Virus record (IMG/VR): IMGVR_UViG_3300012002_000039
Span: 1 to 22,017 of that record
From: a virus
Direction: 5' to 3' (one strand)
Length of the DNA: 22,017 nt
Shown here: piece after piece, positions 3,965 to 17,116 of the stretch
Position numbering within the stretch: the stretch's first letter is position 1
Layout of the letters: the number at the start of each line of letters is the position of its first letter
Position numbers and translations under genes: made by a program
Notes under the pieces: model-generated
What the model was told of the DNA's origin: nothing
Seen by the model: the letters and a program-made list of their open reading frames with translations, nothing else
Databases searched by the model: none

Positions 3965-6708
3965 TACTGTCTTGCGTTCTTATCCTTAAACTCTTTTACC
4001 TCTTCTAGACGTGTATCTAGCTCGAAGAGATCGGGACCATTTATTTCACCCATTAAGCGTACCAACGTGTTTACATTAACGTTCTGGTTTGATGCAAGTC
4101 CAGAACTAGGTGCAATTGATTCCATTGCATCCCTTGTAACTATTTGTCCATCTGCACTTGGAATGAAGAACTCTCTATCACCTAATCCATGTGTTTCAAA
4201 CAATCTTCCACCCTCAACTGGACCACCACTTTCACGGGATGGAATAAACCCTCCTTCTCCACCACCTTCTAATTCTAATCTTTCACCCCTATCTCTACCT
4301 CTACTTGTACCCCTACTCGGACCTATAGCACTTGCACTTGCAACTAATCCTGTACCTAGTGCGACCAATAATGCACCACTTCCAGCACCTACTCCTGTTA
4401 TAATTTGAGCTGTACCAACTGCAATTAACTGTTCACCTACCAATCTCATTACATTTGCAAGTGCCGAACGTGCTGCATCACTAAATGATTTAATAACACT
4501 TTCTCCCTCACCTATTGCAGCACCAAGTTCGATAAATGCTGATTGCAATCCTTGTACTGCTGCTCTTTGTGCATCTAATGATGTAAACTCTGTACTAAAC
4601 TGTGATACACTATCGGCTGCATCTTCTGCATCTTCTCCTGCACCCTTTAATTCATCCCTTGTATCTTTAAGTCTTTCTATAAGCTCTTGTATCCTTTCAA
4701 TAGACTCTTTATCACTTGTATTTCTTAGCTCATCATCAAGTACGCTTATTGCATGGTTTATTCTGTTAATAGTATTGAGCATCCCAACGGACATTACACG
4801 TCTAACGTCCGTTATACCTTGAACAGTATCCTCGAAGGTAACTGGATCTTCATCCAGTGTACCCATTGTTTCTCGGAGTTCAATAAACTCTTGACGTACT
4901 TGTCTTAACCTTTCTCTTTGATCTTCTGATGTTGCTTGGTTGAATAACGTCTCAAGTCTTGATAATACTTTATTGACGTTCGTGATTGAGTCTAATAGGT
5001 TACTATCAAGGAAATCTCTAGCATCTTCTGCACTTTGAATTGCAGAACTAAAGTCTAAATCAAGAGGTTGACTTAATAGTTTAAGTAGGTTAAAGTTAGT
5101 CTCTATAATTACATTTTGAACCTCTTCTATTGCTCCCTTTCTTCTTTCTACCAGTTCGTTTACTTTTTCCTCATCTTCAACCCGTTCTGCTGATGTATCC
5201 TGAATAACATCTAATGCTCTCTTTTCTACACGCCTTCTTTGTATAAGTGTATTTACATTTTCGAGCTGCGATTTAATTGCCTCTTCGTTTTGACTAAAGA
5301 ACTCTTGTGCTTCTTCTTGACGTTTTTGTAGTTCTTCGAGAGACAGTCTTTCCTCAATTCCAAGTTGTGCTCTTGCCTGAACTATTGTTCCTATTTGCGA
5401 TACATCTACATCTGTATCTGCGAACTGCTTTCTCAACCTAATAATCTCATTAAACAGTTCAGGTGCATCTCTCATTCGTTCTAATTCATCCCTTACCTGC
5501 TTTGCTTCATCTAATGTTTCTACCTGAAACTCTCCAATTTCAGCCTGCATTGAAAGGATAGACTCGGAAACACTTTGGTATGCTTCCTCTAGCTCTTTTG
5601 CTTCTTCTTCTCTAGATGCAAACCAGCTTGCAATCTTTGGGGCCATTACCAATAGACCCTGTAGTGCAACGATAATACCAACAGGACCTTTCAATGCCGC
5701 AAATACACCTTGAAGTGTATTCTTAAACCCACCTACGTTCTGACTTGCACGTATTAGTTCCTCTGCAACAAATGCAATGTTGTTGCCTGCTCCACGTAAA
5801 CCAAACTGCAAATCTTGGATGAGATCCCCTGTACTAAAGAGGATGTTATTCATATTGCCCATCTCACCCACAAATCCTGCGGTACGATCTCTGATGCGAA
5901 GTTGAGCTACACTTGTAGCATCAGCCTGTACCTCCATCTGTTCTAGTCTATTTACCGCACGTAGAACAGAGTTGTTGAACTCTTCTGTTCTCCCAGATGT
6001 GATTGATAGACTATCGGAGAACCTATTGTAAGTATTTGATGCTTCTAATGTATTAGTGTTAGCTCTATCTAATACATTAGAAAGACGTAATGCGTTATTG
6101 TTAAACTCTTCTGTTTCTTCGGCCGATACTGATATTTGATTCTCAAGTCTGTTTTGGCTATCAATTGCCTCAACAGTTAAGTTATCATATTGCTGTAATG
6201 CAGATTGACTTTCGATTAGTTTATCTGCCTGTTCTCCAGATGCATTTGCAGTCTCCATCTGGATGCCACTTAATTCCTCCTGACTTTGTGCAGCTTTCTT
6301 TGAACTATCGTCTAACTTCTCAAGGTTATCTGACAGTTGGGTTAGATCCCCATTTGCTTCCTGCAATTCGTCTCTAAATCCACGTATTTCCTTGCCAAAA
6401 TCTTCGGCACCAAAGTCAATGAGAGGCGCAACTTGTTGTAATTGTAGTCCAAAGTTTTCTGCTACTTGTTCCGCAGCACCAATCTTGCCTGAAAGATCAT
6501 CTACACCTTGAAATAAATCTCTAATGCGTTGATCGGCTTCAATCGCATTATCACCAAAATCCTTTAATCCTTGTTCAAATCCTTCTGATTCTTGACGTGC
6601 AAATGTTATTGCCCCACCTAAGTTCTCAAATACACGTCCTGTTGAACGTACCTTTTTAATTGCACCTTGATCGTCAATGTCCAAGGTGACTTGTATGGAG
6701 GCAGCCAT
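3964..6708 (-). CDS. Tape measure protein
   Basis: The largest protein of the window (914 residues), following the tail chaperone region as is usual in siphoviruses. Most of it (40-270, 365-745) is predicted coiled coil rich in Glu, Gln, Asn and Leu. Two hydrophobic stretches stand out: 334-363 and 750-796, the latter Gly/Ala-rich as in tape measures thought to enter the host membrane. DLIQDLQFGLRGAGNN (298-310 region) is a segment commonly seen before the first hydrophobic stretch in tape measures. The C-terminal part (816-860) has the Gly-rich ESGGPVEGG...FFIPSADGQ pattern typical of tape-measure ends. At about 0.15 nm per residue it would set a tail of roughly 137 nm. The ATG lies six bases after the frameshift-product stop; no Shine-Dalgarno sequence is present. 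Confidence 0.92.
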   Translation of the reverse strand: MAASIQVTLDIDDQGAIKKVRSTGRVFENLGGAITFARQESEGFEQGLKDFGDNAIEADQRIRDLFQGVDDLSGKIGAAEQVAENFGLQLQQVAPLIDFGAEDFGKEIRGFRDELQEANGDLTQLSDNLEKLDDSSKKAAQSQEELSGIQMETANASGEQADKLIESQSALQQYDNLTVEAIDSQNRLENQISVSAEETEEFNNNALRLSNVLDRANTNTLEASNTYNRFSDSLSITSGRTEEFNNSVLRAVNRLEQMEVQADATSVAQLRIRDRTAGFVGEMGNMNNILFSTGDLIQDLQFGLRGAGNNIAFVAEELIRASQNVGGFKNTLQGVFAALKGPVGIIVALQGLLVMAPKIASWFASREEEAKELEEAYQSVSESILSMQAEIGEFQVETLDEAKQVRDELERMRDAPELFNEIIRLRKQFADTDVDVSQIGTIVQARAQLGIEERLSLEELQKRQEEAQEFFSQNEEAIKSQLENVNTLIQRRRVEKRALDVIQDTSAERVEDEEKVNELVERRKGAIEEVQNVIIETNFNLLKLLSQPLDLDFSSAIQSAEDARDFLDSNLLDSITNVNKVLSRLETLFNQATSEDQRERLRQVRQEFIELRETMGTLDEDPVTFEDTVQGITDVRRVMSVGMLNTINRINHAISVLDDELRNTSDKESIERIQELIERLKDTRDELKGAGEDAEDAADSVSQFSTEFTSLDAQRAAVQGLQSAFIELGAAIGEGESVIKSFSDAARSALANVMRLVGEQLIAVGTAQIITGVGAGSGALLVALGTGLVASASAIGPSRGTSRGRDRGERLELEGGGEGGFIPSRESGGPVEGGRLFETHGLGDREFFIPSADGQIVTRDAMESIAPSSGLASNQNVNVNTLVRLMGEINGPDLFELDTRLEEVKEFKDKNARQ

Positions 6709-6714
6709 ATGAAT

Positions 6715-6942
6715 CTAGGATATTTCATCAAATACCTTTCGGACCCTACTTCTCTCGATATACAATATCAGCCTTTGAATCGGCCAATTGTATACCAATT
6801 CGTTATACTCGCTTGCATCTAGACGTGTAAGTTCTGCAAGCAAAGACGTGTGATCCCCTTCCTCTGATTTAGGGTACCACATGAATGTGTCTTTCCAAAA
6901 GTCTATTCTTGCCTCCGTAAGACTTATAATGTCTTGGAGGCT
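6715..6942 (-). CDS. Tail assembly chaperone C-terminal extension (GT-type, reached by -1 frameshift)
   Basis: A 75-codon frame with no credible start of its own continues from the 112-residue chaperone gene in the -1 frame and ends at TAG (6715-6717), six bases before the tape-measure ATG. It begins SLQDIISLTEARIDFW and ends VRKVFDEIS. Slippage of Lys-AAA on A-AAA-G (6945-6941), or of Phe-TTT on T-TTT-A just upstream, would give a fusion of about 182 residues. The frame is also open upstream to at least 7020. Siphoviruses commonly make G and GT chaperones this way, with the GT part recruiting tail tube subunits to the tape measure. This extension has no other explanation and fills what would otherwise be a 215-base gap. 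An independent start at the internal ATG near 6881 would give only about 55 residues and is less likely. Confidence 0.8.
   Translation of the reverse strand, partial: SLQDIISLTEARIDFWKDTFMWYPKSEEGDHTSLLAELTRLDASEYNELVYNWPIQRLILYIERSRVRKVFDEIS
6911..6941 (-). promoter_or_regulatory. Frameshift-stimulating stem-loop
   Basis: Read on the minus strand, GCCTCC-AAGAC, a seven-base loop ATTATAA, then GTCTT-AC-GGAGGC can form a stem of 6+5 base pairs with a two-base bulge. It starts directly after the A-AAA-G slip candidate and six bases after the TTTT run, a suitable distance for stimulating -1 frameshifting. On the plus strand the same hairpin is followed by TTTTATAAAAT and could resemble a terminator, but no plus-strand gene lies upstream. 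Confidence 0.7.
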
Positions 6943-7262
6943 TTTATAAAATAAGCGGTTAATGCCGCTATTAGACTTTTTACTTGTGCAGGGTGCATCT
7001 CTTTGATGTTGTACTCTTCGGAGTTGAGTACCAATGCATCAATAAATCCCTGCGCCTGAATCAATGCAGGATGTTCAGGTAGCTCCACATCCTCATTTGT
7101 GAAGAGTAATGTTTCTACATCTATTTGTAGATAAAAGCAACACTCTTCAACTAAACCTAAAGACATTTCATCAGGGGCAGGTAACTTAGGATCTGGATCT
7201 AACTTTAGCTCCTTAAGTTCCTGACCATCCCGACGAAATGTTTTTGTTTGTTTCCACGCCAT
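6924..7262 (-). CDS. Tail assembly chaperone (G-type, unshifted product)
   Basis: A 112-residue acidic protein between the tail tube gene and the tape measure, the standard position of the tail assembly chaperone. It opens with MAWKQTKTFRRDGQELKELK and has a compact helical C-terminal part (EMHPAQVKSLIAALTAYF, near 86-103). Its frame ends at TAA (6924-6926), but the -1 frame runs on for 75 codons and a stem-loop sits at the end, matching the G/GT frameshift arrangement. In lambda the two products coat the tape measure during assembly and are absent from the virion. No sequence family was recognised with certainty; the assignment comes from position, size and frameshift architecture. No Shine-Dalgarno sequence is visible. 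Confidence 0.75.
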   Translation of the reverse strand: MAWKQTKTFRRDGQELKELKLDPDPKLPAPDEMSLGLVEECCFYLQIDVETLLFTNEDVELPEHPALIQAQGFIDALVLNSEEYNIKEMHPAQVKSLIAALTAYFIKASKTL

Positions 7263-7287
7263 ACTACTTCCCTATGTTGTTAGGCGA

Positions 7288-7758
7288 TTAGCTACCAGAG
7301 GTATCATCTTCAATTGTATCACCAGGACCAATTCCCACTGCTGTATATTGCACCTGAAAGGCACGATGTCCGTCCTGATTTTGACGTACCTTTCCCATAC
7401 CAACAGTCATTCCCATTTCTCCACCAATAATTTCAGGAGACTTTCCAGACTGTTGAGGTACACGTTTCAACCAAACGTTACCGTTTTCTTCGGCAGCAGT
7501 CTTAAACAAGTCAAAAATGGTACCATCTGAATCATCTTCAAAGATGGTTTGAGAGAAACTTTGAGCTACGGATGCCATTACTTCTCGACCATCACCGATA
7601 GTTTGCATGTTCGGTTCTTCCGTAGGCTCATCTGAATCCCCAATTCTTTCGGGCAAATCAGACCCCTTATATTGATTCCATGTTGGGGTACCTCCGTAGA
7701 TTTCTGGTTTGTCTTCCGTGACGTAATACTCACGTACTAAGTCTTTCGTTACAGACAT
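7288..7758 (-). CDS. Probable major tail tube protein
   Basis: A 156-residue, strongly acidic protein (few Lys/Arg) placed directly before the chaperone genes and after the tail terminator candidate, which is the usual slot for the tail tube protein. The centre has alternating beta-strand pattern (VMASVAQSFSQTIFED, GNVWLKRVPQQ, AFQVQYTAVGIGPGD at about 133-147), fitting the tube beta-sandwich fold; the last strand FQVQYTAVGIG resembles the closing strand of such proteins. The C-terminus is a short acidic tail. Start is preceded by the A-rich leader AACAAAACACT, which is shared almost exactly with the propeller protein gene. The assignment is by order, size and strand pattern; no diagnostic motif was seen. 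Confidence 0.65.
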   Translation of the reverse strand: MSVTKDLVREYYVTEDKPEIYGGTPTWNQYKGSDLPERIGDSDEPTEEPNMQTIGDGREVMASVAQSFSQTIFEDDSDGTIFDLFKTAAEENGNVWLKRVPQQSGKSPEIIGGEMGMTVGMGKVRQNQDGHRAFQVQYTAVGIGPGDTIEDDTSGS

Positions 7759-7767
7759 AGTGTTTTG

Positions 7768-8337
7768 TTATGCATCTGTGATTGAGACTAAAAACTCCAT
7801 GTAATGTGCCCTTTCTTCTCCACTTCCTTCGAGAGATCGTGGCACATTTGGATATACAATGTTGCGGGGAACTCCAAGATATACCATCCTCGGAGTTCCG
7901 TTCACTGTTGGCTCTAAAGACCTACGTTCTCGAATGGTGGGTAATATACCCATCGGATCATAGGCTGTCAACAGGCTTTCCCAAGGTGCAAAGCTGTCGA
8001 TATTCCCATTACCGTCTTCGGACATACCATACCAAAGTACAACGCGAAATGCATCTATGGACCCATGTTGGGTACCATCATTTCGCATTACATTGTTACC
8101 TTCTTCTACACTATCTGGTGCATCAGGACCATCAAAGTAAACCTCACAATGCCGTACTTCCCCACTACTATTTTCTTGTATATCTCTACGTTCTGCACGG
8201 CTTCCAATTCTCATCATTGCCGTGATAGGACGTTGATATACAATAAAATCCTCACTGTGATCGGTAAAGATTTCCTCCAATAAATCAACCAATGCCTGAC
8301 GTTTTTCCGGCATCGGTACTTCCTCAAATGCAGGCAT
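7768..8337 (-). CDS. Probable tail terminator / minor tail protein
   Basis: A 189-residue acidic protein (only about two Lys, many Arg/Asp/Glu) lying between the gpG/gp10-like completion protein and the tail tube gene. This is where siphoviruses usually place the tail terminator, which caps the tube and joins it to the neck. It starts MPAFEEVPMPEKRQALVDLL, a helix as in terminator proteins, and later alternates short strands (FRVVLWYGMSED, HYMEFLVSITDA at the C-terminus). The stop of the upstream gene is one base before the ATG, implying coupling. No family motif identified; the function is inferred from position only. Confidence 0.5.
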   Translation of the reverse strand: MPAFEEVPMPEKRQALVDLLEEIFTDHSEDFIVYQRPITAMMRIGSRAERRDIQENSSGEVRHCEVYFDGPDAPDSVEEGNNVMRNDGTQHGSIDAFRVVLWYGMSEDGNGNIDSFAPWESLLTAYDPMGILPTIRERRSLEPTVNGTPRMVYLGVPRNIVYPNVPRSLEGSGEERAHYMEFLVSITDA

Positions 8338-8338
8338 A

Positions 8339-8965
8339 CTATTTTAGGTCCAATGTAAAGTTATCAATCAATTCTTCCCCTTTCTCTACGATAATTGGTA
8401 CTGCATCTTGCATTGCAGGTAAAAGGTACGGTCTTGCAGGAATCTCAAAGTGTGTTCTGTTCTTTGTTGCAAGTGCTAAACTTTTCCACCTAAATGCTTC
8501 TGGAAAGTCTGTCTCATAAAACATGAACCAAAAGAATCCCCTCATGTCTTCTGTAATCTTAATCCTACCTCCTTTCTCATGTATTCGTGCATATGGAACC
8601 CATATTGTTACCTTCCAATTTAGGCCCATTTCCGTGAACTCAAAAGTGTGCAATCCTTCACGTATTCCTGAACGTCCTCCTGAACCTGGTTGTCCAGATC
8701 CTCTATTATCCCTAAAGTTTTGTGCAACTGCTGCTGAAAGTCTACCCTTAACTTGCCGTAATGTATCGGTAGTATTTGGAGGCAATGCAGGACTATGATC
8801 TACAAAGATTGCTCCTGCATCTCGCATGTACTCTTGAGTTGAGATTCTTACGAACTCATTAGGTATTACTCTTTCTGCTAATGGACGTAATACCTTTTCC
8901 CTCATTTGTTCGGGAAACTCTTTCCATGCAGCAACGAATAAGTCTATGTTAGATTCTATTGCCAT
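8339..8965 (-). CDS. Tail completion / virion morphogenesis protein (Mu gpG / HK97 gp10-like)
   Basis: A 208-residue protein with the signature of the gpG/gp10 morphogenesis family: WVPYARIHEKGGRIKI (about 122-137) followed near the C-terminus by FEIPARPYLLPAM (about 173-185). In this family the YA.IHE.GG motif and the iPaRPyl motif are the two most conserved stretches. These proteins act at the head-tail interface or finish the tail end. The ATG overlaps the stop of the upstream adaptor gene by one base (TAATG), and the downstream gene starts one base after its stop. The N-terminal 60 residues are helical. Length is slightly above the usual 130-180, owing to an insertion between residues 75 and 105 that is Gly/Ser/Arg-rich. 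Confidence 0.8.
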   Translation of the reverse strand: MAIESNIDLFVAAWKEFPEQMREKVLRPLAERVIPNEFVRISTQEYMRDAGAIFVDHSPALPPNTTDTLRQVKGRLSAAVAQNFRDNRGSGQPGSGGRSGIREGLHTFEFTEMGLNWKVTIWVPYARIHEKGGRIKITEDMRGFFWFMFYETDFPEAFRWKSLALATKNRTHFEIPARPYLLPAMQDAVPIIVEKGEELIDNFTLDLK

Positions 8966-9636
8966 TAAGCATAGAACTTATAATCCAAAAGTGTCATTAA
9001 CTGATTAGATACAAACTTCTCATCCAGACTTGTCTTCTGGATTGTAGCTCGCATGTTTGATCCAATGTTCTGGATACTTTCGGACATACCAACTAATCCC
9101 TTAATCTGTTGCGTTGCCCAATACACGGCAATACGTAGGGATACACCTATAATGTCCTGGGGCAATGTTGGTATATCATCTACGCTATTAAGATTGTCCT
9201 CAATGTCACTTGAGAAGTCACTTAATTGATCTTGTCCCTCTCTGCGATAACCTGCAATGTAGTTTACGGAGTTCAATCTATCCTTTGCAAAAATATACCG
9301 ATCTCCGTATATAATTGTGTCTTCATCCGTCCATAATACCGGCCACTCATTTACATGGTGCAATTTCAGACGGTACAAATAATCATCATTTGGAGTACGA
9401 TCTGAACGGCACCAATCCATACTCCTTAATAGTGCCTTGTTGGTATCAACAAGCAACCTACGATTAAGATGATTCTTTACGTGTTCGGATGATTCTTCAA
9501 GTAAACGTATACCTTCATCAGACCACTGACCTGAATCATCAAATACTTGTTCAGCTAGTTTGTCTTCTGCATCCGAACGTAAAAGTATGTTCTTTGCACC
9601 ATCCAGTGTTACCAAAGATTCATCCGATACAGGCAT
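8965..9636 (-). CDS. Head-tail adaptor (gp6-like connector)
   Basis: A 223-residue mostly helical protein at the start of the neck genes. It starts MPVSDESLVTLDGAKNIL and contains VNYIAGYRREGQ (about 124-135) and then a helix region IPTLPQDIIGVSLRIAVYWA (about 154-173). A 'v.Y.aGy' strand followed by an acidic linker and 'lP.dl..a.......y' helices is the usual pattern of DNA-packaging/head-tail connector proteins of the HK97 gp6/SPP1 gp15 type, which form a ring beneath the portal. Its stop overlaps the next ATG. The length is larger than HK97 gp6 (about 110) because of an extra beta segment at 60-123. The family call is by pattern and position. Confidence 0.65.
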   Translation of the reverse strand: MPVSDESLVTLDGAKNILLRSDAEDKLAEQVFDDSGQWSDEGIRLLEESSEHVKNHLNRRLLVDTNKALLRSMDWCRSDRTPNDDYLYRLKLHHVNEWPVLWTDEDTIIYGDRYIFAKDRLNSVNYIAGYRREGQDQLSDFSSDIEDNLNSVDDIPTLPQDIIGVSLRIAVYWATQQIKGLVGMSESIQNIGSNMRATIQKTSLDEKFVSNQLMTLLDYKFYA

Positions 9637-9650
9637 GTGTGTTTAATACC

Positions 9651-10121
9651 TCACTTGTTTTGGAGCTTATTGATAGCTTCTTTGCGTGCCTCCATGTATG
9701 CATCCTTAATGTCTTTCGAGTAGGATTCTCCAATCCCACTTATTTCGGTGAAGTCCTCACTATAATCTGAAAGATCACCAAAAGTGTGAATGTCATTCTT
9801 CTTTAGTTGCCCGAAGTGAGGAAAGGTTTGCGGGATCATTTCATCGAAGAAGTTCATCTTATTCCCTTTGTCAACATCAGCTCCACTGTCTTCCTGGTCC
9901 TCGTCTTCTTTCTTAACCTCCGAAGTCTCTTTCTTCTCCGTGAATGTCTCGTCCTCATCTTCTTCTATAAACTCGACATACCCTCTCATCTCTAATGTTT
10001 CAGCTATAGGTTCAGGTAGGAGAATTACATCCCCTTTATTTGCAAGGTTTTTATTACCTTCCCTGGATACATTCTCCATTGTATTATTCATAAATGCAGT
10101 CTTTGCCTTAACCTTTTTCAT
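9651..10121 (-). CDS. Acidic helix-hairpin-helix phage protein
   Basis: The likely start is the ATG at 10119-10121, which overlaps the glycosyltransferase stop as ATGA; this gives 156 residues starting MKKVKAKTAFMNNTMENVSR. The frame is open 69 bases further upstream (to 10190), but that part overlaps the glycosyltransferase. Residues 27-55 (GDVILLPEPIAETLEMRGY) resemble a small phage module (DUF7302-like: a Gly-Asp turn, then 'l.e..A..L...GyvE'). Residues 56-100 are a highly acidic linker. The C-terminal part (105-150) contains HTFGDLSDYSEDFTEISGIG, a helix-hairpin-helix pattern like that of the RNA polymerase alpha C-terminal domain, often involved in DNA or protein binding. Located at the head end of the neck gene group; role unknown. 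Confidence 0.6.
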   Translation of the reverse strand: MKKVKAKTAFMNNTMENVSREGNKNLANKGDVILLPEPIAETLEMRGYVEFIEEDEDETFTEKKETSEVKKEDEDQEDSGADVDKGNKMNFFDEMIPQTFPHFGQLKKNDIHTFGDLSDYSEDFTEISGIGESYSKDIKDAYMEARKEAINKLQNK

Positions 10122-11224
10122 GACAGTTCTGGTAGTTTGTAATGATGTTTGTCGATGTTCCAGTCTTCTTGAATAGGGGATCTTTGCCACTGACTATACC
10201 TTTCTTCTGTTATCCCCATCTTTTGCTTCTTTTGCTTCACCCACTTTCTACTCCTTTGTTTGTTATATCTTTCGGGATTGCTACCATGACGATCATGTAT
10301 GCAAGTCGTATCCAATACTAATGCAACACCTAGAGGTACATCTTCGGGTACATCTGGAAGGTAGAATGGACGTGCATCATCCATTTGAACAACTGTTTCT
10401 GCATACCCATAATCTACCAGTTGTTTGCCATATTCTTCGGGTACTTTAATCCACTGATTCCCCATCTTCCGGCCGCCAAGGTATTTTCTATTCTGGATGG
10501 TAGTCTTAAGGTAAACATCCATGTTACCATCCTTATCTACAACATCTGGATTATTTCCAGTTGCACGTTTTATATACCTTTTTCTCCACTTCCAGTCTAA
10601 TTTATTATAGGGCCAATCCTCATTTAATGGTGCTCTTAATGCTGCAAGTCGCGTGAACCACTCGATATGCTCCTGTAACGGCAAAGATTCATCCCACGGA
10701 TTCCACTCAACGGCACCACGGCACGCGAGAAACCAGTTCGGGGTAAACATGACCCTCACCCAAGGTCCAACTTTGCGCCCGTTAGAAGCCGAAATTAGCG
10801 TTTCTGACGGATGCCGAAGTTCGGCAATGGTACCATTATAATCTACTTCTCCGGTAAACCAATTGTCCCTCTTTCTACCAAATGTCCAATTACCACCTAC
10901 AACACCAATATCATCCTGCGATTCTATAAGGTCAAAGAACTTTCGTATGTCTGTATCCTCTGTGCATATATAATCATCATCCCAAACGAATACATACGGT
11001 TCGTTTGTACGTTGCACTAGATGATTCCTCTTTGCAGACAGCCCAATATCATACGCATTTGGAGGTACGTTATATGCACCATCAAAGTCTGTTCTCTCCC
11101 TACTATCGTCACATATGTATATGTTGGGCTTGTTGCCGTAATGGTTACGTATTGAGTTAATTAACCTTTGGGCAACACGAGGACGCTCATGTGTTGTTAT
11201 AATGTGTGCAATCTTGTTATGCAT
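10118..11224 (-). CDS. Family-2-like glycosyltransferase with C-terminal accessory module
   Basis: A 368-residue protein. The N-terminal part is a GT-A nucleotide-sugar fold: KIAHIITTHERPRVAQRLI (4-22), then YICDDSRERTD (36-46), DIGLSAKRNHLV (59-70) and the metal-binding DxD-type motif VWDDDY (80-85). A WDESLPLQEHIEWF stretch (177-190) fits the region holding the catalytic acid. It is most like GalNAc-transferase/family 2 enzymes that work on exposed sugars. Residues 257-282 (VPEEYGKQLVDYGYAE) repeat the small module seen in the next gene; residues 300-368 are basic and unassigned. It overlaps the sulfotransferase by eight bases and the next gene by four, so these genes are translated together. 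Targets could be the virion, the host envelope or a capsid glycan; the sequence does not say. Confidence 0.85.
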   Translation of the reverse strand: MHNKIAHIITTHERPRVAQRLINSIRNHYGNKPNIYICDDSRERTDFDGAYNVPPNAYDIGLSAKRNHLVQRTNEPYVFVWDDDYICTEDTDIRKFFDLIESQDDIGVVGGNWTFGRKRDNWFTGEVDYNGTIAELRHPSETLISASNGRKVGPWVRVMFTPNWFLACRGAVEWNPWDESLPLQEHIEWFTRLAALRAPLNEDWPYNKLDWKWRKRYIKRATGNNPDVVDKDGNMDVYLKTTIQNRKYLGGRKMGNQWIKVPEEYGKQLVDYGYAETVVQMDDARPFYLPDVPEDVPLGVALVLDTTCIHDRHGSNPERYNKQRSRKWVKQKKQKMGITEERYSQWQRSPIQEDWNIDKHHYKLPELS

Positions 11225-11846
11225 ATTGCCGGGATGTATTTTCTGTAATTCCGGCTTCTACTTTCCAATTACTTTGCGGTATACCTGCATGTTTCAGTAT
11301 ATACCTAACTCCAACCTCATTGTTAAGCTCCCTTGTCTCAAATAGCTTAACCTCACTGTAATTGTTTGCCGCATTTTGCATTAAGGATACACAATGATCC
11401 CAAAATCTTCCAATAGCAACTCCACGTTCTTCTCCAGGCTTATATATTGGGTAACACTTATCCCAATCGCTAAACTCATACTTTTCGCCATTGTGATACT
11501 GCCAATGATTCTTATCTGTTACCCAACGTTCGTATGATGCAATAACCTCATCACGAGGACGAACTAGACCTATAATCCTAACCTGAACGTCAAACTCATT
11601 TCCCCAATGAATAAATTGCTCAATGTGCGGAGTCCAGTAAAATGCACAATCTCCAGCTACATCTACTTGTTCATTGTTAAGGTCCATAAATAAACGATAT
11701 GCCCATAGATACGATGGGCAATTCCATCGTACCTTATGGGCATATCTTTCGTGGGTAACTCTTGAACCAGGTTGTTGACATAGGAGTTGCGATAGGGAAG
11801 TAGAACCGCAGCGTCCTGTACCAACTCCGATTACAATGTCACCCAT
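11217..11846 (-). CDS. PAPS-dependent sulfotransferase
   Basis: A 209-residue protein with the two PAPS-binding elements of the sulfotransferase family. The 5'-phosphosulfate loop is GTGRCGSTSLSQLL (9-22), a clear P-loop-like GRxGSTxL motif. The 3'-phosphate element is LVRPRDEVIASYERW (94-108), with Arg96 and Ser104 at the expected places. The C-terminal helix ETRELNNEVGVRYILKHAGI (170-189) fits the conserved 'l..E.L..d.e..l..i..flg' region. The enzyme would transfer sulfate from PAPS to a hydroxyl of a sugar, lipid or protein. It is short for the family (usually 250-330), but the cofactor motifs are intact. It overlaps the glycosyltransferase gene by eight bases, suggesting that the sugar is the acceptor. 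Confidence 0.85.
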   Translation of the reverse strand: MGDIVIGVGTGRCGSTSLSQLLCQQPGSRVTHERYAHKVRWNCPSYLWAYRLFMDLNNEQVDVAGDCAFYWTPHIEQFIHWGNEFDVQVRIIGLVRPRDEVIASYERWVTDKNHWQYHNGEKYEFSDWDKCYPIYKPGEERGVAIGRFWDHCVSLMQNAANNYSEVKLFETRELNNEVGVRYILKHAGIPQSNWKVEAGITENTSRQYA

Positions 11847-11896: not shown

Positions 11897-13357
11897 TTAA
11901 GAACCACCAGAAGGAGAAGTTGCATCCATACTTTCGTTCTTAACCATACTATCAGGTTGTTCGACAGTAACCGTACCACGTAGATAGGCACGAATAGTTA
12001 CCATCAGTTTCTCAAAGTCATCAGCGTTCTCCGTTGCAATCTCCAACGAAGTCTGACGACGATCATAAAAGGTAGCTCCAACTGCAAAGTTACCTACAAG
12101 TGAGCTTCCTTCCGGCATTGCATTTGTAGATACAATTGGCAAACCCCAAAGTCGTGGTGTTTGTTGACTTTGTGCGTTTGCAAATCTGTAACTACCATCA
12201 TTGTCTTTCTCAAGAACAATGCCCCACCAATTCAATGGTGAGAGTAAAATGCCAGTTGCAGGGAAGTTTGAACGTTGAACTTGAAGGATACTAACCCCAA
12301 TTCGGTCAATATCATCAGCAGTACCATCTACAACTGCATTTTCCAAGTTGGTATTATAGGCACTAGATTGAGGAAAAATCCCATCTAGGTTTTGTCCAGT
12401 ACCATCCCCAAGCAATACTTGATCTTCAAGTGCCAATTCAAGAAGTTGTCTCATTCTTGTATTGACAAATGTTCGGAGACGTGGAGCATCATCTAGAATC
12501 TGGATGCTAGACTTAGCAATATGCCCCAATGTTGCGACAGTTGACGTATTAAGTGTAAACGTCATATCTGTCTGTCCAAGTGCACTACCTTGTCCAGATT
12601 GAACGTCTGCATTGTCCGTCTCACTTTGTTGCTTAACCCATTCCACTGCATCGGAGTCAGTTTCCAACACAGTCAATAGGTCAATAACTGTAGGGGTTCT
12701 AAGTGTAGGATCTTGGACGATCTGTTCACGTTCATCTGGAAATACAACTGGACCTGCACTTCCAGAAACGTTAGTGATATCTTTAAGTCCAACATCATCG
12801 AAATCAACCTTCAATGACGACCCTGCACTTGGACGATTCTTAAAGTTACGCTCATCTACCTTGTCCAGTACCTTTTGACCTAGATCGTCAATAGGCTTTT
12901 TACCTCCAGTCCATTTCTCCTGAACCTTTGTATCAACTTCGTCAACGTGTTCTTGAATCTCACCTACATCTTCACGTAGGCTTTTAATATCATCAACAAG
13001 TTGACTGTTTTCCTCGGAGATACGTTCAATCTTGGTCTTGGCATCATGAGCTGCATCTTTTGCAGTCTTAACATCCCCTTCTAGACCATCTTCCCCAAGG
13101 ATACGATTGAGGTTCTTTTTAAGACCCTCAACCTTATCTTTCAACTCTTTTGTTGCAACTGCTCCGGCCGATGCATACATACCATTACCGGGCATGTCGG
13201 TATGCAATGTTCCGACCTTATCTCCAAGGTATTCGGCCGTACATGTCAATGTATGATCCAGATGTTGCACTTCTGCGCCATACTCCGCCCCAAACAACGC
13301 GACGGTTCCGGCAAAAAGGGCAATAAATGCCCAATACCACTTTCCAAGTTTATGCAT
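11897..13357 (-). CDS. HK97-fold major capsid protein with N-terminal hydrophobic segment
   Basis: I chose the ATG at 13355-13357, which overlaps the protease stop as ATGCATAA; this gives 486 residues. An ATG nine bases upstream is possible. Residues 7-27 (WYWAFIALFAGTVALFGAEYG) form a likely membrane helix, unusual for a capsid protein. About 70-168 is a charged coiled coil, the scaffolding delta domain of HK97-type proteins. From about 178 the mature shell domain follows, with PVVFPDEREQIVQDP, a helix region RLRTFVNTRMRQLLELALEDQVL, SPLNWWGIVLEKDNDGSY (about 353-370) and a closing beta sheet near TIRAYLRGTVTV. The prohead protease next door would remove the N-terminal part during maturation. 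No downstream start explains the frame better, as the next Met (13195) would leave about 150 bases unexplained. Confidence 0.9.
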   Translation of the reverse strand: MHKLGKWYWAFIALFAGTVALFGAEYGAEVQHLDHTLTCTAEYLGDKVGTLHTDMPGNGMYASAGAVATKELKDKVEGLKKNLNRILGEDGLEGDVKTAKDAAHDAKTKIERISEENSQLVDDIKSLREDVGEIQEHVDEVDTKVQEKWTGGKKPIDDLGQKVLDKVDERNFKNRPSAGSSLKVDFDDVGLKDITNVSGSAGPVVFPDEREQIVQDPTLRTPTVIDLLTVLETDSDAVEWVKQQSETDNADVQSGQGSALGQTDMTFTLNTSTVATLGHIAKSSIQILDDAPRLRTFVNTRMRQLLELALEDQVLLGDGTGQNLDGIFPQSSAYNTNLENAVVDGTADDIDRIGVSILQVQRSNFPATGILLSPLNWWGIVLEKDNDGSYRFANAQSQQTPRLWGLPIVSTNAMPEGSSLVGNFAVGATFYDRRQTSLEIATENADDFEKLMVTIRAYLRGTVTVEQPDSMVKNESMDATSPSGGS

Positions 13358-15729: not shown

Positions 15730-16022
15730 CTTGATTGCAGTATGTCTTTTTCAGCGAACTTCTGTATTGCCTTTGGAGCAAAAGATGCAATAAGCCATCC
15801 AGTTATAATAAATACCCCAAAGTTGGATGGTTCTTCCTTAGATAGAACCATATAAGTGTAACCTATTGCTGCAAATAATGCAATGAATGACATAACCCTC
15901 ATTGCACTTGTTTTACCAGATGATTCTTCAAGTAGACCTTTACCATTTTTACGTTCCTCTTCTATCCTACGATCTTGTTCCTGTCTTCTTTTGCAGCAAC
16001 AACAGTTACAATCCTTGTTCAT
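15726..16022 (-). CDS. Cys-rich two-helix membrane protein, holin candidate
   Basis: A 98-residue protein. The N-terminus MNKDCNCCCCKRRQ has five Cys in six positions, followed by a charged stretch. Two membrane helices follow: 41-60 (MRVMSFIALFAAIGYTYMVL) and 67-84 (NFGVFIITGWLIASFAPKAI), and a short charged tail KFAEKDILQSR. Length, two helices and charged ends fit class II holins, and similar phage proteins ending in PKAIQKFAE are often annotated as holins, but there is no lysin gene beside it here. Start and stop overlap the neighbours as ATGA, so it is made with the secreted Excalibur-like protein upstream. Role in lysis, or in modifying the host membrane, is inference. Confidence 0.65.
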   Translation of the reverse strand: MNKDCNCCCCKRRQEQDRRIEEERKNGKGLLEESSGKTSAMRVMSFIALFAAIGYTYMVLSKEEPSNFGVFIITGWLIASFAPKAIQKFAEKDILQSR

Positions 16023-16492
16023 TCTTCGTAGGAGTATATTTCATACAATGTGTCAAGACACTCTGCCTCATTTATTGTAGGCATGTAATCTTGCTGATTA
16101 AATGGTGCACGTCTCATTTGAAGCTCAAACTCCTGTATGTTTATTGTACCTGCAAATGCATCGCAATGTGCTGAATGTAGCACTTCAATTGTACGAACCC
16201 ACCATCCCTCTGCATATACAATCTTTCGGTTATAATCTAATCCTTCACATGCATACCCATTGTTATCCCCATCAAGACGGTGGGGATCTGCTGTAGGATC
16301 TCCAACGATGATCTGCAATGCACGGTAATGAGACTGTGCATCAACCAATCCCGTAAAGTCGCTGCAATCTTTATCCCTACCTAGAAAGGCTTGAATACTG
16401 TCAATGTTCACTGTTTGTCCAAAAGATACACTGGACATTGAAAGTGAACATATGATGCAGGTGAGAACAAATCTTGCAATTGTGCTCGACAT
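16019..16492 (-). CDS. Secreted Excalibur-like calcium-binding protein
   Basis: A 157-residue protein. Residues 1-26 form a signal peptide: a hydrophobic core ARFVLTCIICSLSMSSVSFG with a probable cut near FGQT. Residues 41-84 hold an Excalibur-like domain: DCSDF (42-46), then DPHRLDGDNNGYACE (69-83). The Asp residues at 69, 74 and 76, Asn78 and Glu83 look like the calcium loop, and Cys43 and Cys82 are the conserved disulfide pair. A second half (105-150) has HCDAF and ECLD Cys residues that could form another disulfide. It would be exported to the cell surface or periplasm of the host. It is the first gene of a minus-strand run starting from the divergent region, and its stop overlaps the two-helix protein. 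Phage Excalibur-like proteins have no settled role. Confidence 0.7.
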   Translation of the reverse strand: MSSTIARFVLTCIICSLSMSSVSFGQTVNIDSIQAFLGRDKDCSDFTGLVDAQSHYRALQIIVGDPTADPHRLDGDNNGYACEGLDYNRKIVYAEGWWVRTIEVLHSAHCDAFAGTINIQEFELQMRRAPFNQQDYMPTINEAECLDTLYEIYSYEE

Positions 16493-16633: not shown

Positions 16634-17116
16634 ATGGGCGATCTCAATTTTGAAGTAGTTTCCAACAAGGAAGCAAACCAGGCAATTGGTTCTACAACCA
16701 GAGGACGTAAGTCAGAGTACGAACCTGTTGCACGTCAATGGGCAGAACTCGCTGATGATGAAAGCATCGTTCTCGATGGGCTTGAGCAGAACGATGTTCA
16801 GAACATTCGCAATCTGATGTATCGTCGATTTGGCAAGGAGGATGTTATTGTACGATCTGCCAAAAAGGAGGATGGTCTTTATAAGGCCATTGTTCGCCAA
16901 CGCGATGGTGATGAATACCTGCGTGATGGTGATGATACATCGGCAGATGATGATGAGAATCCGTTTGCTGATGTTGCTGATGATGATGTTGATGCAACTG
17001 ATGCAGCTTTGGATCTTGCACTTGGAAATGGTATCGACCTTTCCGATGTACAAGGTTCGGGTAAAGACGGACGTGTAACTAAGAGTGATGTTGAGGACTA
17101 CATGAAGGGTGAGTAA
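16634..17116 (+). CDS. Two-domain protein with C-terminal E3-binding-like (peripheral subunit-binding) motif
   Basis: A 160-residue protein, the only plus-strand gene between 1 and 20.9 kb. Residues 24-90 (GRKSEYEPVARQWAEL onward, with YRRFGKEDVIVRSA) form an alpha/beta domain like small DNA-binding domains of phage regulators (inference). Residues 91-121 are a very acidic linker. Residues 126-159 (LALGNGIDLSDVQGSGKDGR, then VTKSDVEDYMKG) follow the E3-binding motif of 2-oxoacid dehydrogenase E2 proteins: 'a...GiDls.V.GtG.dGrItk.DVe.y'. The same fold is used for DNA binding in Lsr2-type nucleoid proteins, so a host- or phage-DNA binding role is possible. A strong terminator follows. The gene sits as a separate unit within a minus-strand cluster, as phage morons do. 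Confidence 0.75.
   Translation: MGDLNFEVVSNKEANQAIGSTTRGRKSEYEPVARQWAELADDESIVLDGLEQNDVQNIRNLMYRRFGKEDVIVRSAKKEDGLYKAIVRQRDGDEYLRDGDDTSADDDENPFADVADDDVDATDAALDLALGNGIDLSDVQGSGKDGRVTKSDVEDYMKGE

What the first reader, a model, noticed from the sequence alone, without database searches (positions are those of the whole stretch)
10118..11846. Sulfotransferase and glycosyltransferase pair inserted between capsid and neck genes
Two modifying enzymes with intact cofactor motifs (PAPS loop GRCGSTSL; GT-A motifs IGLSAKRN and WDDDY) overlap each other by eight bases and replace the usual direct step from capsid to adaptor gene. Phage-encoded glycosyltransferases that decorate virions are known; one coupled to a sulfotransferase inside the head operon is unusual. 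The pair could build a sulfated sugar on the capsid or tail, or alter the host surface to exclude other phages.
Basis: partly seen in the sequence, partly recalled or inferred. Interest (0 to 1): 0.75.

Follow-up and report, generated by a model that had tools for sequence, protein, structure and literature searches.

The report
Phage enzymes likely sugar-coating own capsid

Summary
A sulfotransferase (ST) and a GT-A glycosyltransferase (GT) overlap by 8 bp between the HK97-type capsid gene and the connector genes. The order capsid-ST-GT-small protein-connector recurs in about eight diverged lineages (mostly 40-45%, lowest 32%, identity to the window's ST/GT), including all 184 Salinibacter ruber phage records that match this capsid. 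The pair is a fixed part of this head module and is under purifying selection.

New finding: in every lineage with an intact pair, the capsid protein ends in Gly-Ser-COOH, and so does the tail-tube protein wherever it could be read. No other head or tail protein compared does. Mycobacteriophage Che8, of the group reported to be glycosylated at the C-termini of capsid and tail tube, ends both proteins the same way. Relatives without annotated GTs do not. One relative has deleted ST and GT and also lost the Gly-Ser from its capsid protein.

Best reading: GT glycosylates the C-terminal Ser of capsid and tail tube, and ST sulfates the sugar. GT also carries a module shared with the next-door small protein, possibly for docking. 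The kind of system is known from mycobacteriophages. The ST, the unrelated GT and the halophile host group are new here. The chemistry is inferred, not shown.

The parts
11217..11846 (-). Sulfotransferase (ST), 209 aa: 5'-phosphosulfate loop GVGTGRCGSTSL (codons 11793-11828), invariant THER, 3'-phosphate-binding-like pair R96/S104 (11535-11561)
   Evidence: PF13469 weak in all 7 family members scanned; AlphaFold pLDDT 88.8 (97); Foldseek best PDB hits TPST1, TPST2, 3rnl; invariant motifs across 9 homologues
10118..11224 (-). GT-A glycosyltransferase (GT), 368 aa: GLSAKRN, WDDDY (DXD), conserved (Q/N)EHxExF as likely catalytic-base region
   Evidence: PF00535 36 bits, above cut-off; TIGR04440 8e-7, below cut-off; profile vs B4GALNT1 6.8e-14 (64); alignment A11 (70)
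10385..10543 (-). Module inside GT (about residues 228-280) homologous to the N-terminal domain of the small protein encoded next to it; proposed docking module
   Evidence: hhalign probability 98.6%, E=5.5e-16 over 46 columns; hmmsearch both ways; phrog_2616 hit on both proteins
9651..10121 (-). Small protein, 156 aa; start overlaps GT stop by 4 bases; N-terminal module shared with GT, C-terminal helix-hairpin-helix-like stretch
   Evidence: present after GT in all lineages with sequence there
11897..13357 (-). HK97-type major capsid protein, proposed acceptor (486 aa from the ATG)
   Evidence: PF05065 7.4e-34, NCBIfam major_cap_HK97 3e-33 (5, 7)
11900..11905 (-). Codons of the C-terminal Gly-Ser of the capsid protein (...DATSPSGGS), proposed glycosylation tag
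   Evidence: Gly-Ser invariant in all lineages that keep ST/GT, lost in the ST/GT deletion L118
7288..7758 (-). Tail-tube protein, 156 aa, proposed second acceptor; ends ...EDDTSGS
   Evidence: Position before chaperone and tape measure; AlphaFold pLDDT 68.9 (84); best Foldseek PDB hits are phage tail and tail-tube entries: 80alpha, P1, NF5, SPP1, lambda
7291..7296 (-). Codons of the C-terminal Gly-Ser of the tail-tube protein, proposed glycosylation tag
   Evidence: invariant G155-S156 in 7 homologues
8965..9636 (-). Head-tail connector (adaptor) gene that follows in the conserved order
   Evidence: position; homologues in every lineage with sequence there, 28-40% identity
8339..8965 (-). Neck/tail-completion protein
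   Evidence: phrog_26 1.7e-4 (6); conserved order

Best explanation
The pair is a virion-decoration cassette. GT acts in the cytosol and transfers a sugar from a nucleotide-sugar donor to the C-terminal Ser of the two most abundant virion proteins, the capsid and the tail tube, which share the terminal tag Gly-Ser-COOH. ST then transfers sulfate from PAPS to that sugar, giving a particle covered with acidic sulfated sugar. GT may be held near assembling heads by a module it shares with the small protein encoded right after it. Shown by sequence or model: conserved gene order, enzyme folds and motifs, the tag on both proteins, tag loss with enzyme loss in one relative, the shared module. Inferred: Ser as acceptor, sugar before sulfate, sugar identity, docking, benefit (charge or hydration in brine, shielding, adsorption).
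For: (1) Capsid-ST-GT-small-connector order kept in about eight lineages and in all 184 Salinibacter phage records that match this capsid. (2) Capsid proteins end in Gly-Ser in every lineage with an intact pair; tail tubes end in Gly-Ser in all 7 that could be read; no other compared head/tail protein does. HK97-like capsids without the pair: 2 of 24 clusters. (3) L118, 94-96% identical to Salinibacter phages, has lost ST and GT by a start-codon change, a frameshift and a deletion of about 1.5 kb, and its capsid changed from APTAGS to APTAA (55-59). (4) Che8 ends its capsid in NKTGS and tail tube in YSDGS; glycans on the C-termini of capsid and tail tube of Mycobacterium phages are reported in PMC12619734 citing Freeman 2023. 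Other GT-carrying actinophages mostly do the same: prophiGD57-2 AGS/AGS, Marvin QGS/GGS, Cornie EGS/DGS, Catdawg VGS/GDS, Brujita TAS/AGS. AGM1, Dubu (no annotated GT) and TM4 (GT status not checked): none. (5) ST relatives lie in sugar gene clusters in a 111-kb phage contig and a Methylomagnum plasmid. (6) dN/dS 0.14-0.32 for ST and GT. (7) No transmembrane-like stretch in ST or GT.
Against: No glycan or sulfate has been measured on these phages. GT is not detectably related to the Che8 GTs beyond the shared GT-A DXD region. The tag rule has exceptions: Thibault has GTs but ends in PSF/GLS, and two control capsids end in GS without the pair. The window lineages form one clade, so their shared tag is partly common descent; the independent support is the tail-tube tag, the actinophages and the single loss event. 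L118 is one assembled contig and does not reach the tail-tube gene. ST could sulfate tyrosine (best fold hits are tyrosylprotein sulfotransferases, with low TM-scores) instead of sugar.
Confidence: 0.72

Rival explanations
1. Host-surface modification: the enzymes put a sulfated sugar on host envelope polysaccharide during infection and so block superinfection or re-adsorption.
For: Phage GTs that alter host O-antigen are well known (general knowledge); the enzymes could use host glycans; ST homologues occur in bacterial sugar clusters.
Against: Cytosolic enzymes without membrane segments, no flippase or polyprenol-sugar partner nearby, fixed late position beside the capsid in all lineages, and no reason for a Gly-Ser tag on capsid and tail tube or for its loss with the enzymes (55-58).
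Confidence: 0.1
2. Virion modification of another kind: GT glycosylates the virion, but ST sulfates a protein side chain (for example Tyr) or another virion component.
For: Best PDB fold matches of ST are tyrosylprotein sulfotransferases.
Against: TM-scores are low (0.5-0.58) and sugar, metabolite and general sulfotransferases score similarly; ST neighbours elsewhere are sugar genes; ST and GT are always found together in this head module and are lost together in L118.
Confidence: 0.13
3. The Gly-Ser ends are an assembly or processing feature unrelated to the enzymes, and ST and GT are passenger genes.
For: Window lineages are one clade; Gly-Ser ends occur now and then without GT (L041, L096).
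Against: Same end on two unrelated proteins, again in unrelated GT-carrying actinophages, joint loss in L118; passengers would not keep one slot and 8-bp and 4-bp gene overlaps over such divergence, nor dN/dS of 0.14-0.3 (113).
Confidence: 0.05

Closest known systems
Mycobacteriophage virion C-terminal glycosylation (Che8 and others; Freeman et al. 2023, read here only through citing papers PMC12619734, PMC11600133, PMC11256854)
   Same: Phage-encoded GT-A enzymes; glycans reported on the C-termini of capsid and tail tube; Che8 capsid and tail tube both end in Gly-Ser; in cluster J (Thibault) the glyco-enzymes lie between capsid and connector genes.
   Different: Mycobacteriophages carry several GTs often with a methyltransferase; the window has one unrelated GT plus a sulfotransferase, fixed in the head operon, in a different capsid lineage and with Salinibacter ruber as the known host of relatives.
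GT12-like GT-A glycosyltransferases (beta-1,4-GalNAc transferase, B4GALNT1)
   Same: N-terminal 100 residues match at E=6.8e-14, DXD motif, EH motif region.
   Different: No membrane anchor; middle module shared with a phage small protein; acceptor probably a protein C-terminus; donor unknown.
PAPS-dependent sulfotransferases (Sulfotransfer_3, TPST, 3rnl)
   Same: P-loop, R...S pair with spacing 8, overall fold in the model.
   Different: Only about 200 residues, below the Pfam cut-off, own phage subfamily next to capsid gene.

Membership tests
Phage virion C-terminal glycosylation system (Che8 type) | Phage-encoded glycosyltransferase | tested here: met
   GT, PF00535 above cut-off, DXD conserved in 9 homologues
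Phage virion C-terminal glycosylation system (Che8 type) | Matching C-terminal Gly-Ser ends on capsid and tail tube (as seen in Che8) | tested here: met
Phage virion C-terminal glycosylation system (Che8 type) | GT homologous to the Che8 GTs gp108-110 | tested here: not met
   Only 7.5 bits over the DXD region with gp108; hhalign probability at most 10.6%. So it works like, but is not the same family
Phage virion C-terminal glycosylation system (Che8 type) | Glycan physically present on virion proteins | not testable with these tools
   needs mass spectrometry
PAPS sulfotransferase | 5'-PSB P-loop and 3'-PB Arg/Ser pair | tested here: met
   GxGRCG(S/T)xSL and R96/S104 (spacing 8) invariant in 9 homologues; assignment of the pair to the 3'-PB motif rests on general knowledge
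PAPS sulfotransferase | Score above the curated Pfam cut-off | tested here: not met
   PF13469 22 bits vs 27
PAPS sulfotransferase | Sulfotransferase fold | tested here: met
   AlphaFold pLDDT 88.8; Foldseek best hits sulfotransferases, E 5.8e-5 to 2.9e-4, with other P-loop kinases just below
PAPS sulfotransferase | Catalysis with PAPS | not testable with these tools
   needs enzyme assay
GT-A / GT2-GT12-like glycosyltransferase | GT-A domain with DXD and catalytic acidic residue | tested here: met
   PF00535; B4GALNT1 profile hit; D82-D84 and E185-H186 invariant

The most novel reading that the evidence does not exclude
A C-terminal Gly-Ser (or at least C-terminal Ser) end on capsid and tail-tube proteins is a general, convergently used acceptor tag read by unrelated phage glycosyltransferases in distant phage groups, and in the halophile lineage the sugar is sulfated by a phage enzyme, giving phage-made sulfated virions; the tag could then predict glycosylated phages from sequence alone.
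Probability: 0.45. Interest if true: 0.8.

Novelty: new variant of a known kind. Interest (0 to 1): 0.66.

Why it matters
Phage virion glycosylation is known to me only from actinophages. This shows the likely same strategy, with the same C-terminal signal on capsid and tail tube, in phages of an unrelated salt-lake bacterium, and adds sulfation. Many isolates with a culturable host exist (184 records on Salinibacter ruber M8), so it is directly testable, and it offers a simple sequence signature for spotting decorated phages and, if it holds, a C-terminal tag for placing sugars on protein particles.

Tried and rejected
Single-sequence scans of IMG/VR for GT and ST found nothing; alignment-based scans were needed. 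Both genome-contig scans found no GT relative, so a bacterial or prophage source is not known. A search for GT-less relatives through the tail-tube protein found only contigs already known to carry the pair, so no close natural control exists for that protein; the capsid scan gave only distant HK97-like controls. Homology of GT to Che8 GTs was tested and not found. PDB sequence search with ST alone gave nothing useful. Corndog and L5 records were not held. The Freeman 2023 paper itself is not held, so whether it already names the Gly-Ser end could not be checked. The idea that the two genes are accidental passengers was rejected on conservation of place, overlaps and selection.

Full report
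Observation. The window is an IMG/VR virus fragment of 22,017 bases with a tailed-phage head and tail module on the minus strand: TerL, portal, Mu-F, protease region, HK97 capsid, ST, GT, small protein, connector, neck, tail proteins, tape measure. ST (11217-11846) and GT (10118-11224) are as described and overlap by 8 bases. GT overlaps the small gene (9651-10121) by 4 bases, so capsid is followed by three tightly packed genes before the connector (8965-9636).

Enzymes. GT passes Pfam PF00535 and as a profile matches human-type B4GALNT1 at 6.8e-14 over its first 100 residues. DXD and an (Q/N)EH motif are conserved in nine homologues. ST is weak by sequence but all seven members scanned hit Sulfotransfer_3 over the P-loop. 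Nine homologues share GxGRCG, THER and R96/S104. The AlphaFold model is confident and its three best PDB matches are sulfotransferases, with P-loop kinases a little below. Named viral matches include phage and giant-virus sulfotransferases.

Conservation. All 184 Salinibacter phage records that match the capsid protein also match ST and GT, at 41-42% identity. The records read in full have the same order and a 7-bp overlap. Alignment-based IMG/VR scans gave further lineages, each with capsid-ST-GT, including the divergent L115. dN/dS is 0.14-0.32 for ST and GT, close to the connector. The pair is therefore a standing part of this head module and not a recent passenger.

The C-terminal tag. Printing the ends of all shared proteins showed that capsid proteins end in ...SPSGGS...APTAGS...APSGS...APTTGS...APSSGS or ...SPSGS, and tail-tube proteins in ...TSGS...NAGS...NSGS...YTGS...FSGS or ...GGGS, while none of the other shared head or tail proteins ends in GS. 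Later lineages agree (L115 ...GPSGGS, L119 ...APVGS). The tail-tube identity rests on gene position and on a moderate model (pLDDT 68.9) whose best PDB matches are phage tail and tail-tube entries. HK97-like capsids without the pair end in GS in 2 of 24 clusters; the Fisher value of 4e-6 given there ignores common descent and should be read as descriptive.

A natural loss. L118 is 94-96% identical to Salinibacter phage 2_12 on both sides of the cassette, but its ST has lost its start codon and frame and about 1.5 kb covering the rest of ST and nearly all of GT is missing. Its capsid has changed from ...APTAGS to ...APTAA with the reading frame kept. It is one contig, and it ends before the tail-tube gene.

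The yardstick. [quoted passage not shown] PMC11256854 says Che8 has glycans attached to its major capsid protein. Che8 ends its capsid in NKTGS and its major tail protein in YSDGS. Phages then chosen for having GT genes (before their ends were looked at, all reported) end: prophiGD57-2 AGS/AGS, Marvin QGS/GGS (gp43 by position), Cornie EGS/DGS, Catdawg VGS/GDS, Brujita TAS/AGS, Thibault PSF/GLS. AGM1 and Dubu, whose full annotations list no GT, and TM4, whose GT status was not checked, end in neither GS nor S. So the tag is common but not universal among GT carriers; a C-terminal Ser is almost universal in this small sample (13 of 14 proteins).

Shared module. GT residues 228-280 are homologous to the N-terminal part of the small protein encoded next to it (hhalign 98.6%, E=5.5e-16). 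Such sharing suggests, but does not show, that GT is docked to the same partner as the small protein during head assembly.

Mechanism. The most economical account is cytosolic O-glycosylation of the terminal Ser of capsid and tail tube, followed by sulfation of the sugar. ST homologues in sugar gene clusters favour sugar over tyrosine as the sulfate acceptor. The donor sugar is unknown; the GalNAc-transferase match makes a HexNAc a fair guess. The benefit (charge and hydration in brine, shielding, adsorption) is speculation.

Membership. It works like the mycobacteriophage system but its GT is not a detectable homologue of the Che8 GTs, so it is filed as a new variant of a known kind. The sulfotransferase, the fixed place in the head operon, the GT-small-protein shared module and the Salinibacter host group are the differences. 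I could not read Freeman 2023, so the Gly-Ser end may already be described there for mycobacteriophages.

Noticed in passing
window 13300-13357 (-) and capsid N-termini in L002, L009, L011, L013, L115: The capsid precursor begins with a hydrophobic, signal- or membrane-anchor-like stretch before the coiled-coil delta region in six of seven lineages (peak hydropathy 1.5-2.5); it is absent in L006 and in three ordinary HK97-like capsids checked. It might tether prohead assembly to the membrane.
   Followed up: partly
window 16019-16492 (-): A small protein with an Excalibur calcium-binding domain and a signal-peptide-like start sits inside the head module; no homologue was found in the related loci compared.
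   Followed up: no
L002 13363-14865: The Salinibacter phages read here carry a TnpB/IS605-like ORF and a small upstream ORF between Mu-F and protease genes; its length differs among isolates.
   Followed up: no
window 16634-17116 (+): A plus-strand gene lies opposite to the head operon between the Mu-F region and portal; L119 239-643 (-) looks similar and is also opposite to its operon.
   Followed up: no
L126 (Thibault) 5423-11302: Cluster J mycobacteriophage Thibault has GT, kinase and methyltransferase genes between capsid and connector genes, the same slot as here, but its capsid and tail-tube ends lack Gly-Ser.
   Followed up: partly
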